Part shown: in pieces, positions 54,371 through 57,339 of the stretch | Position numbering within the stretch: the stretch's first letter is position 1 | Layout of the letters: each line of letters starts with the position of its first letter | Source of the DNA: Acidobacteriota bacterium | Lineage (GTDB): Bacteria > Acidobacteriota > Thermoanaerobaculia > Multivoradales > Multivoraceae | Assembly: GCA_003388555.1 (NCBI GenBank) | Contig: QQVD01000005.1 | Span: 1-64,000, forward strand | Reading direction: 5' to 3' | DNA length: 64,000 bases | Notes under the pieces: model-generated | Databases searched by the model: none | What the model saw: the letters and a program-made list of their open reading frames with translations, nothing else | What the model was told of the DNA's origin: nothing | Position numbers and translations under genes: made by a program

Positions 54371-54736
54371 ATGAACATCAAGCCGAACCGCACGACGATC
54401 GCTGCCCTGGCCACCGCCACCCTGCTGGCGCTGCCCCTCGCCGCGACGGCGCAGGAGCCTCAGCCGAACGAGCCGGAGCCGGTGACCGAGACACAGCCCT
54501 ACGAGTCCGAGCAGGACTTCGAGGCGCAGGCCGAGCTCGAGGTCGAGGCCGACGAGCAGACCGCCGACGCCGACGTCGACGTCGACGCCGATGCCGAGGT
54601 GAACGGTGAGCTGGGCGACGAGACGGACGACGACCGTGAGCTCCCCGCGACCGCGGGCCCGATCGGTCTGCTGGCCCTGCTCGGTGTCGGTGGTGTCACG
54701 GGCGCGGCCGCCCTGCGCAAGAAGAACCGCTCCTGA
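54371..54736 (+). CDS. Small acidic sortase substrate with LPATA sorting signal
   Basis: The 121-residue precursor has a signal peptide (1-28, TIAALATATLLALPLAATAQ). A strongly acidic, probably disordered mature region follows (29-90, rich in Glu, Asp, Pro and Ala, with VDVDADAE-type runs). Then come LPATA-G at 91-96, a hydrophobic helix at 97-115 and the basic tail RKKNRS. This is the three-part sortase cell-wall-sorting signal, and LPxTA is the form recognised by class D sortases. A class D-like sortase gene starts 505 bp downstream. ATG 54371 is preferred over ATG 54365 because of spacing to GAGGAG. The attachment target is unknown. Confidence 0.85.
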   Translation: MNIKPNRTTIAALATATLLALPLAATAQEPQPNEPEPVTETQPYESEQDFEAQAELEVEADEQTADADVDVDADAEVNGELGDETDDDRELPATAGPIGLLALLGVGGVTGAAALRKKNRS

Positions 54737-55240
54737 TCACTGACCGCTGACCGTTGACCTGGCCGTCTCCACTCGCCGGGCAGAGTGCGAAGGGCTCTGG
54801 CAACAGAGCGCCGACGACTCGACAGGCCCTGAGAGCGGAGACACCAGGTGAGAGTCGCGCCGCCTGCCGGCGCGTGACATTCGCAGCGGGGAACCGCATG
54901 ACGCCGAGCTCGCAGCCGCGATCGAAGCGCTGACGGATCCCCGCTCCTTCTCCCGGTGCGGTGGACCAGCGTCCCGCCAAGGGGCGCGGTCCCCGCGCCG
55001 AAGGAGGGGGCCGCAGCCCGGAGTCGACGCCATGGACCGATGGTCGATGGCGAACGGCAGCGGAGGCGCCTGAGCTTCCCCTCACTGCCCTAAACGATCC
55101 GAAGAAGAACCACCGAATCGAGGCCGCAAGCGCGCGGCGACATCGAAGCCCTGACGACCCGGGAGAGCCGAGACCTCGTCCACCGCGACGTCTGTCTCGC
55201 CAGAGACGAACAGAGACCCGACGCACCCGACGGAGCCGAC
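54737..55240. other. Spacer between sortase substrate and sortase genes
   Basis: A GCTCTG-GCAA-CAGAGC hairpin with a GNRA tetraloop (54794-54809) lies 60 bp after the substrate gene. It has no T-run and may be a processing or partial-termination site. CTGACCG/TTGACC repeats stand at 54737-54760. The remaining sequence shows no convincing gene; CGGAG at about 55230 may be the ribosome site for the sortase GTG. Confidence 0.4.
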
Positions 55241-55999
55241 GTGCAGCCATCCGCCCCCACCACCCCTCGACCGATCCCGCCGCCGCGCGACCCGATGAAC
55301 GAGACCAGGAGCGAGGCGCCCAGCCGGCGCTCACTTCGTGCTGCGGCGTGGGCGGAAGCTGTGCTGTGGGCAGCGGCGCTGGTGTGTTTCGCCGCCGCCG
55401 GCTGGCTGGCCTTCGAGGCCAATCGCTACGAGTGGTTCGGCGTCGAGCTGGCGACGGCCGAGGAGCTCGCCGAGGCGGGGGCGAGCTCGGACGGTGTCGG
55501 ACTGCCGCCGGAAGGGACTCCGATCGCCCTGCTCGAGATCCCGCGGCTCGGGCTCGAGGTGACGGTGGCGGAAGGCACTGCGGACTCGGTGCTGCGTCGC
55601 TCCGTCGGCCGTCTACGCGCCAGCGCGCCGCTGGGCGGTCGCGGCAACACCGCGCTGGCCGGTCACCGCGACACCCACTTCCGCCGGCTCGAGGAGATCG
55701 CGGCCGGCGATCGCATCGTGCTCAGCGGACCACTCGGTCGTCGCGAGTACGAAGTGGCGTGGACGCGGGTGGTGGAGCCGGACGAGACCTGGGTGGCAGA
55801 CACCAGGTCGGTGCGCGCGCCCCCCGAGCTCACCCTGGTCACCTGCTATCCGTTCCGCTGGGTGGGCACCGCGCCGCAGCGCTTCGTGGTGCGCGCCAAC
55901 CTCGTCGCCGAGGACGCCACGCTGACGCCGACCAGGGAGATCCCGCCGGCGTCGGGAGCCGCGAACGCCGGATCGGCGCGGACGGCGGCGCTGCGCTGA
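55241..55999 (+). CDS. Class D-like sortase (transpeptidase)
   Basis: The 252-residue enzyme has a membrane anchor at about 35-57 (AAAWAEAVLWAAALVCFAAAGWLAF) and a sortase barrel: IALLEIPRLGLEVTVAEGTADSVLRRSVG, NTALAGHRDTHFRRL with catalytic His142, ELTLVTCYPF with Cys202, and PQRFVVRA with Arg214. The His-Cys-Arg triad and the TLVTC sequence are canonical. It should cleave between Thr and Ala of LPATA in the protein encoded 0.5 kb upstream and transfer it to an amine acceptor. GTG 55241 has CGGAG upstream; ATG 55295 would still include the anchor. Its TGA overlaps the next ATG by one base. Confidence 0.92.
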   Translation: MQPSAPTTPRPIPPPRDPMNETRSEAPSRRSLRAAAWAEAVLWAAALVCFAAAGWLAFEANRYEWFGVELATAEELAEAGASSDGVGLPPEGTPIALLEIPRLGLEVTVAEGTADSVLRRSVGRLRASAPLGGRGNTALAGHRDTHFRRLEEIAAGDRIVLSGPLGRREYEVAWTRVVEPDETWVADTRSVRAPPELTLVTCYPFRWVGTAPQRFVVRANLVAEDATLTPTREIPPASGAANAGSARTAALR

Positions 56000-57339
56000 T
56001 GTTCCCGGGCGCGCGCCTGCGCTCGAGGATCGACTCCGGGGATCGGCCGAGGCACTTCGATCGACGCCGCGCTCTCGCGTGGGCTCTCGGGCTGCTGTTC
56101 GCGCGTGGCACCTCCGGTCGCGCGGCTTCCTCGCCTTCGGCGTTTCCGCCGCTCCGCGAAGACCTGCCTCCCTCGCCGCGCCGTGCCGGTCCGGAGGCTC
56201 CCGCCGTCGCGCAACCGGCGGACGCTTCGGGCGTCGACGTGCCCGCGAGGGCGCTGCTGCCACCTGCGCTCGGCATCTCGACCCGCGCCGTCGACCTGGT
56301 CCGCGACACGACGGTCATCGACCTGCTCGGCCTGCTCACCCTCGACTGGCATCGTCTGTTCGGCTGGCAGCGCGAGCCGGCCGGCTTCGGTGTCGAGCGC
56401 TACCGCGAGCTGGAGGCCAGCGGTGTCGGTGTGCTGCACCCGGCGGTCGAGACCGGCGAAGCGGATGCACGCCGTGGCGTGTTGCGGTGGCTGCGAGGCT
56501 GGCGCAATCTGGTCGGCGACGGCTCGTGCTTCCTGGCGCCGGTCGGTTCCGCCGAGGCCCTGGTGAGGGCAAGCAGCAGCGGCCGCATCGGCGTCGTGGT
56601 GGGCTTCCAGAACGGGACCCACTTCGACGGTGGAGCAGACGTCGACCTGTTCTTCCGCCTCGGCCAGCGCGTCTCGCAGCTCACCTACGACGGGCGCAAT
56701 CGCCTGGGCAGCGGCTGCCGGGTGCGCAGCGACGAGGGGCTCACCGCCCTGGGACACGAGATCGTGCACGCGATGGGCGACGTCGGCATGGCGCTCGACG
56801 TCTCGCACGCCGGCGAGCGCACGGCACTCCAGGCGATCGCGGCGTCGTCGCGACCGGTGCTGCTGACCCACACCAACTGCAGGGCGTTGCACGAACACCC
56901 GCGCAACGCCTCCGACGAGCTGCTGCGCGCCGTCGCCGAGAAGGGCGGAGTCGTCGGGCTGACCATCGTCAGCGCCTTCGTCGGCCCGTCACGGCGTGCC
57001 GACCTCGAGCGCCTGATCGATCACTACGAGCACGCCCTCGACATCGCCGGCACCGAGCACGTCGCGATCGGCAGCGATGCCGATGCCGAGGCACGAGTGG
57101 CCGGTTCCGACCGGCCGAACCCCTTCTACGTGCTGCGCGGCATGGAGCCGCGCTGGCGGGTCTTCCAGATCGCCGATGCGCTGCTGCGCCGGGGCTGGTC
57201 GGAGGAAGTCGTGCGCGGTGTCCTGGGAGGCAACGCGCAGCGTGTGCTGTCGTCGATCTGGCCACCAGAGCGAGGTTGGCAGCGCTCCGGTCGCGATCCC
57301 TTCTGCCCGGCCCCGGCCCGCCCGCTCCTCTGGCGCTGA
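55999..57339 (+). CDS. M19 membrane dipeptidase-like protein with altered metal site
   Basis: The 446-residue protein has an N-terminal Arg-rich and hydrophobic signal (ALAWALGLLFARG) and a renal-dipeptidase-like barrel: VIDLLGLLTLD, GRIGVVVGFQNGTHF, LFFRLGQRVSQLTYDGRNRLGSGC, MALDVSHAGERT, VLLTHTNCRALHEHPRNASDE, and HVAIGSDADA. The His of DVSHAG and the His of LTHTNC remain. The first HxD pair (usually DGHND) and the bridging Glu (usually EGG) are replaced by DLLGLL and FQNGT. It overlaps the sortase stop (TGATG), so the two are co-translated. It may bind rather than cleave D-Ala-type peptides; that is inference. Confidence 0.8.
   Translation: MFPGARLRSRIDSGDRPRHFDRRRALAWALGLLFARGTSGRAASSPSAFPPLREDLPPSPRRAGPEAPAVAQPADASGVDVPARALLPPALGISTRAVDLVRDTTVIDLLGLLTLDWHRLFGWQREPAGFGVERYRELEASGVGVLHPAVETGEADARRGVLRWLRGWRNLVGDGSCFLAPVGSAEALVRASSSGRIGVVVGFQNGTHFDGGADVDLFFRLGQRVSQLTYDGRNRLGSGCRVRSDEGLTALGHEIVHAMGDVGMALDVSHAGERTALQAIAASSRPVLLTHTNCRALHEHPRNASDELLRAVAEKGGVVGLTIVSAFVGPSRRADLERLIDHYEHALDIAGTEHVAIGSDADAEARVAGSDRPNPFYVLRGMEPRWRVFQIADALLRRGWSEEVVRGVLGGNAQRVLSSIWPPERGWQRSGRDPFCPAPARPLLWR

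What the first reader, a model, noticed from the sequence alone, without database searches (positions are those of the whole stretch)
54371..57339. Self-contained sortase system: LPATA substrate, class D-like sortase and a degenerate dipeptidase
A 121-residue acidic protein carries a full sorting signal (LPATA-G, helix, RKK tail). The enzyme encoded next has the sortase triad His142/Cys202/Arg214, and class D sortases are known to use LPxTA. The M19-like gene overlaps the sortase stop codon. Gene content (TonB receptor, lipoproteins) points to a diderm, where sortases are rare and their anchoring acceptor is largely undefined. The coupling to a peptidoglycan-peptidase-like protein suggests that this protein supplies or recognises the acceptor. 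This last step is inference.
Basis: partly seen in the sequence, partly recalled or inferred. Interest (0 to 1): 0.8.

Follow-up and report, generated by a model that had tools for sequence, protein, structure and literature searches.

The report
Private one-substrate sortase cassette
An Acidobacteriota bacterium with an outer membrane carries a three-gene cassette: a tiny acidic protein with a sortase signal, the sortase next door that appears to serve it alone, and a translationally coupled, altered dipeptidase-like protein; the pair is real and widespread in this phylum, while the role of the third protein is still open.

Summary
The 121-aa acidic protein ends LPATAG-helix-RKKNRS, the next gene is a sortase with His142/Cys202/Arg214, and an M19-like gene starts inside the sortase stop codon (TGATG). 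Whole-genome searches find two LPxTA signals in this LptD-encoding (diderm) genome, each beside its own sortase. In 149 Thermoanaerobaculia genomes, 42 of 56 strong LPxTA signals lie within 2.5 kb of a sortase; 20 of 22 other Acidobacteriota genomes with a signal show the same. This is a dedicated sortase-substrate pair, closest to class D (best solved relative 2LN7) but below curated class D cut-offs.

The M19 link is narrower but real: the order substrate-sortase-M19 occurs in four genomes of three families, with the TGATG overlap in three, unlike flanks, and matching clades in both trees. The M19 protein is not simply decayed. It belongs to a conserved branch (Leu/Leu for the HxD pair, Gln for the bridging Glu, two His and the Asp kept) that mostly occurs without a sortase nearby. 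That weakens 'it supplies the acceptor': nothing tested ties it to peptidoglycan. Acceptor and M19 role remain untested. New variant of a known kind, interest about 0.5.

The parts
54371..54736 (+). Substrate: 121 aa; signal peptide, about 63-residue acidic disordered-looking segment (26 D/E, 1 K/R), LPATAG, hydrophobic helix, RKKNRS
54632..54733 (+). C-terminal sorting signal DRELPATAGPIGLLALLGVGGVTGAAALRKKNRS
   Evidence: profile match 51.4 bits, one of only two in the genome below E 0.5 (the profile contains this sequence)
54734..55240 (+). 505-bp gap between substrate and sortase; strongly folded RNA just after the substrate stop (z -3.7); four relatives give z -1.9 to -5.2
55295..55999 (+). 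Sortase (GTG start at 55241 also possible): N-terminal membrane helix, His142, Cys202, Arg214; class D-like
55997..56001 (+). TGATG overlap of sortase stop and M19 start; same in L084 and L085
55999..57339 (+). M19 (PF01244) protein, 446 aa, likely export signal with RRR, HxD to LxL and bridging Glu to Gln204; His270, His291, Asp360 kept

Best explanation
This is a dedicated ('private') sortase system of a diderm bacterium. Shown by sequence: the small acidic protein has an export signal and a tripartite sorting signal; the neighbouring sortase keeps the catalytic triad; each of the two LPxTA signals in the genome sits beside its own sortase. Inferred from the sortase family: the substrate is exported, held in the inner membrane by its C-terminal helix, cut between Thr and Ala of LPAT|AG by Cys202, and the thioester is resolved on the periplasmic side by an amine, most likely a peptidoglycan stem amine, leaving a short acidic peptide displayed on the acceptor. 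Inferred from gene coupling: the exported M19 protein is made together with the sortase and works in the same compartment, most likely by binding or trimming a small peptide through a one-metal or metal-free version of the M19 site. What that peptide is (acceptor, released C-terminal piece, or something else) is unknown. Likelihoods: sortase-substrate pair 0.9; transfer to a peptidoglycan amine 0.5; M19 takes part in the same process 0.55; M19 supplies the acceptor 0.15.
For: Triad and families. Class D closest: NF058671 114 bits, NF033746 112 bits, against 86 (GN), 75 (E), 61 (C); best solved relative 2LN7, then 4D70; the class D enzyme of B. anthracis cleaves LPNTA (PMC3208642, PMC4498605). 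Dedicated pair: two LPxTA signals in a 98.8%-complete genome, next candidate E 0.5. Recurrence: about 49 of 79 sortase loci in the class have a neighbouring LPxT[AG] protein (counted by eye, including the fused L084/L156); 42 of 56 strong signals within 2.5 kb of a sortase, 37 of them 5' on the same strand; 34 of 35 genomes with a signal have the sortase; outside the class 22 of 22 genomes with a signal have a sortase, 20 beside it. Control: the same kind of signal scan over the M19-only loci gave two chance-like hits in over 40 loci. Cassette: same three-gene order in window, L084, L085, L086; TGATG in three; flanks of the window not shared with the others; M19 clade support 99, sortase clade 96. 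Diderm: LptD.
Against: Curated class D cut-offs are not reached. Most of the M19 branch lives without a nearby sortase, so its activity does not need one. In G038 the clade's sortase has Ser for Cys and no M19 gene follows it. The window M19 is the fastest-changing copy, differing at 18 of 100 positions that are otherwise at least 93% conserved, against 0 to 9 in nine others checked, which could mean relaxed constraint. No acceptor was identified.
Confidence: 0.62

Rival explanations
1. The sortase-substrate pair is real, but the M19 gene is only an operon passenger: an independent exported enzyme that came to lie behind the sortase once in Thermoanaerobaculia.
For: The M19 branch is common in Acidobacteriota without a nearby sortase, and a related M19 occurs in same-family genomes without any sortase relative; only four cassettes known; window copy evolves fast.
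Against: The junction overlap is kept in three genomes although the window's flanks differ from the others, and the linked M19 proteins form one clade matching the linked sortases.
Confidence: 0.4
2. The enzyme acts as a releasing protease rather than an anchoring enzyme: it cuts the substrate off its membrane helix and water resolves the thioester, freeing an acidic peptide into the periplasm.
For: The substrate has no recognisable folded cargo, only 41-75 acidic, proline-containing residues before the motif in all five relatives; no acceptor was identified.
Against: Sortases in general are transpeptidases (established knowledge); nothing here was measured.
Confidence: 0.2
3. The M19 protein supplies, prepares or recognises the peptidoglycan acceptor.
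For: Overlapping genes; M19 enzymes cleave dipeptides with a C-terminal D-residue (established knowledge); fold match to dipeptidases, Z near 40.
Against: Metal ligands of one site replaced; same branch found without sortases nearby; no peptidoglycan-specific feature seen.
Confidence: 0.15

Closest known systems
Class D sortase of Bacillus anthracis (SrtC/SrtD, 2LN7) with BasI/BasH
   Same: Best sequence match among solved structures; LPxTA motif; enzyme and one substrate in the same operon (PMC3208642)
   Different: Monoderm spore-former with two substrates; here a diderm, one acidic substrate without recognisable cargo, an M19 gene coupled behind; below curated class D cut-offs
Dedicated Gram-negative (class GN) sortase TIGR03784 with target TIGR03788
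   Same: One sortase, one adjacent substrate, Gram-negative hosts (PMC3237569); a true member sits elsewhere in this genome (L003)
   Different: Window sortase scores 86 against a cut-off of 158; its substrate has no VWA or vault domain
LPXTA system of Bacillus cellulosilyticus (LPXTATN)
   Same: LPxTA, acidic unstructured linker before the motif (PMC3617157); NF058671 is the best family model for the window sortase
   Different: There 27 proteins share the signal; here one substrate that is little more than the linker
M19 dipeptidases (PF01244); nearest solved relative by profile 2I5G
   Same: Full M19 fold, two His and the catalytic Asp kept
   Different: HxD replaced by LxL and bridging Glu by Gln across the branch

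Membership tests
Sortase superfamily (PF04203) | Profile match over the curated cut-off | tested here: met
   97 bits against 26.6
Sortase superfamily (PF04203) | Catalytic His, Cys, Arg | tested here: met
   His142, Cys202, Arg214; invariant in the four cassettes
Class D sortase (NF033746 / NF058671) | Curated model cut-off | tested here: not met
   112 of 165 and 114 of 140 bits; still the best of all class models
Class D sortase (NF033746 / NF058671) | LPxTA-type substrate | tested here: met
   LPATAG here; LPRTAS/LPRTAG in relatives
Class D sortase (NF033746 / NF058671) | Cleavage after Thr and transfer to an amine | not testable with these tools
   needs biochemistry
Class GN sortase (TIGR03784) | Curated model cut-off | tested here: not met
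   86 of 158 bits; the C9 paralogue reaches 174
Sortase substrate (LPXTG-type sorting signal) | Signal peptide, motif, helix, basic tail | tested here: met
   read from the sequence; conserved in relatives
Sortase substrate (LPXTG-type sorting signal) | Library profile PF00746 or NF058670 | tested here: not met
   no match for the window substrate
Dedicated sortase pair | Single matching substrate next to the enzyme | tested here: met
   two LPxTA signals in the genome, each beside its own sortase
Peptidase M19 (PF01244) | Profile and fold | tested here: met
   220 bits against 26; Z 40 to renal dipeptidases
Peptidase M19 (PF01244) | Full binuclear metal site (HxD, Glu, His, His) and catalytic Asp | tested here: not met
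   HxD to LxL, Glu to Gln; His, His, Asp kept. The HxD count is partly selected by the search pattern

The most novel reading that the evidence does not exclude
A non-canonical M19 protein is an accessory of a diderm sortase: made together with it, binding a peptide through a remodelled M19 site and steering the thioester towards a defined acceptor, or recycling the cut-off signal piece.
Probability: 0.25. Interest if true: 0.8.

Novelty: new variant of a known kind. Interest (0 to 1): 0.5.

Why it matters
What sortases attach proteins to in bacteria with an outer membrane is, to my knowledge, an open question. This cassette reduces it to one enzyme, one 121-residue substrate and one coupled helper candidate, so the acceptor could be read directly from the modified substrate. 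It also documents LPxTA sortase pairs across Acidobacteriota, for which my literature searches found no description (open-licence papers only).

Tried and rejected
M19 as a constant sortase partner: rejected, only four loci. M19 as a decaying pseudogene: unlikely for the branch, since invariant residues persist in 47 of 47, but the window copy is changing fast. Search for another conserved neighbour of the M19 branch in 39 loci that might reveal its role: no close, consistent partner, mostly lineage-level synteny. Sigma-70-like promoter around substrate and sortase start: none found. Sortase structure model: too low in confidence (pLDDT 58, four sequences) to search with. Other LPxTA substrates of the window sortase in the genome: none below E 0.5. 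Paper searches for sortase with M19 dipeptidase gave nothing relevant.

Full report
What is there. Three genes run in one direction at 54371-57339. The first encodes 121 residues: an export signal, about 63 residues with 26 Asp/Glu and one basic residue, then LPATAG, a hydrophobic helix and RKKNRS. Its TGA stop shares its A with the ATG of a 446-residue M19 protein (PF01244, 220 bits).

Host. Related records with names are Thermoanaerobaculia and other Acidobacteriota; the genome encodes LptD, so an outer membrane is expected. The genome holds three sortases: this one, one on contig C42 with an LPQTAS protein beside it, and a true class GN sortase on C9 (174 bits, cut-off 158) beside its VWA-type target.

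The pair is real and dedicated. A profile of 14 sorting signals finds two signals in the whole genome, each next to its own sortase; the next candidate has E 0.5. Both were in the profile, so their own scores are by construction; the absence of others is the informative part. In 149 genomes of the class, 56 signals pass E 1e-5 (some were in the profile); 42 lie within 2.5 kb of a sortase, 37 of them 5' on the same strand, and 34 of 35 genomes with a signal have the sortase. In a sample of the phylum, 22 further genomes have a signal; all have a sortase and 20 have it within about 2 kb (distances read by eye). Relatedness between genomes is not corrected for in the Fisher value.

Class. The best class models are the two class D models, below their curated cut-offs; the nearest solved chains are 2LN7 and 4D70, which I take from general knowledge to be the class D enzymes of B. 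anthracis and C. perfringens that PMC4498605 compares. B. anthracis class D sortase prefers LPNTA (PMC3208642, PMC4498605). So 'class D-like' is right as a working description and not proven as membership.

The cassette. Substrate, sortase and M19 occur in the same order in L084, L085 and L086. L085 is the same stretch as L155 of G075, L086 the same as L034 of G011, and L084 the same contig as L156 of G076; they are counted once each. The genomes belong to three families. The TGATG junction is present in the window, L084 and L085; in L086 the frames overlap but no ordinary start codon is evident at the junction. Beyond these genes the window shares nothing with the others in the stretches compared; L084 and L085 share one further upstream gene, and L085 and L086 one further gene. 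Linked M19 proteins form one clade (support 99), and linked sortases fall in one clade of six (support 96) whose other two members are a contig end (G012) and G038, with Ser for Cys and no M19 behind it.

The M19 protein. Compared with canonical M19 proteins of the same genome, His and Asp of HxD are Leu and Leu and the bridging Glu is Gln; two later His and the catalytic Asp remain (ligand roles from general knowledge of renal dipeptidase). The same state holds in 47 of 47 branch members, though one of the two search patterns selected for the LxL part. The Gln, both His and the Asp were not selected for. The predicted model has the full M19 fold (Z near 40 to dipeptidases). I read this as a conserved branch with a changed metal site, possibly using a single metal; this last step is inference. 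Most branch members have no sortase within the 4 to 17 kb held, and same-family genomes carry a related M19 with no sortase relative at all. In the window copy 18 of 100 otherwise conserved positions differ.

Mechanism and limits. Export, membrane retention, cleavage after Thr and thioester formation follow from the sortase family. The acceptor is not identified; a peptidoglycan amine is the default guess. The M19 role rests only on gene coupling. The region after the substrate gene folds strongly in the relatives (z -1.9 to -5.2) and in the window (-3.7), which could set more substrate than enzyme; this was not tested further.

Verdict. Observation confirmed; interpretation partly supported; new variant of a known kind. 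Dedicated Gram-negative sortase pairs are already described (PMC3237569).

Noticed in passing
L084:678-1739 (+): Substrate and sortase lie in one open frame with no stop between; a natural fusion with consistent membrane topology, or a lost stop or assembly error.
   Followed up: partly
L036:8520-9296 (-), G038: Sortase of the cassette clade with Ser in place of the catalytic Cys (TLVTSFPF) and regulator/sensor kinase-like genes instead of M19 downstream.
   Followed up: partly
L002 / L046 (G000 contig C42, 15422-16507): Second class D-like sortase of the genome beside a 242-aa protein ending LPQTAS-helix-RAVR.
   Followed up: partly
L003 (G000 contig C9, 182613-182954): Class GN sortase over its curated cut-off with an adjacent VWA-type target ending LPAGGTG-helix-RRSRP.
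   Followed up: partly
L085:5009-5710 (-): A second protein with an LPRTAG signal, on the opposite strand next to the cassette, with a larger N-terminal part.
   Followed up: no
window:54734-54880; L084:935-1060; L085:7170-7306; L086:7015-7150; L035:6095-6240: Strong RNA folding right after the substrate gene in all cassettes; in L084 a perfect 12-bp hairpin without a T run.
   Followed up: partly
window:57668-60175: M1-family peptidase-like protein downstream on the same strand (PF01433, 43 bits); no counterpart found beside the other cassettes.
   Followed up: no
window:52480-54039 (-): Alpha-L-fucosidase family protein (PF01120) upstream on the opposite strand.
   Followed up: no
G325, G379, G070:C355, G069:C143: LPxTA signals that are not next to a sortase, possible additional substrates in genomes with a sortase elsewhere.
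   Followed up: no
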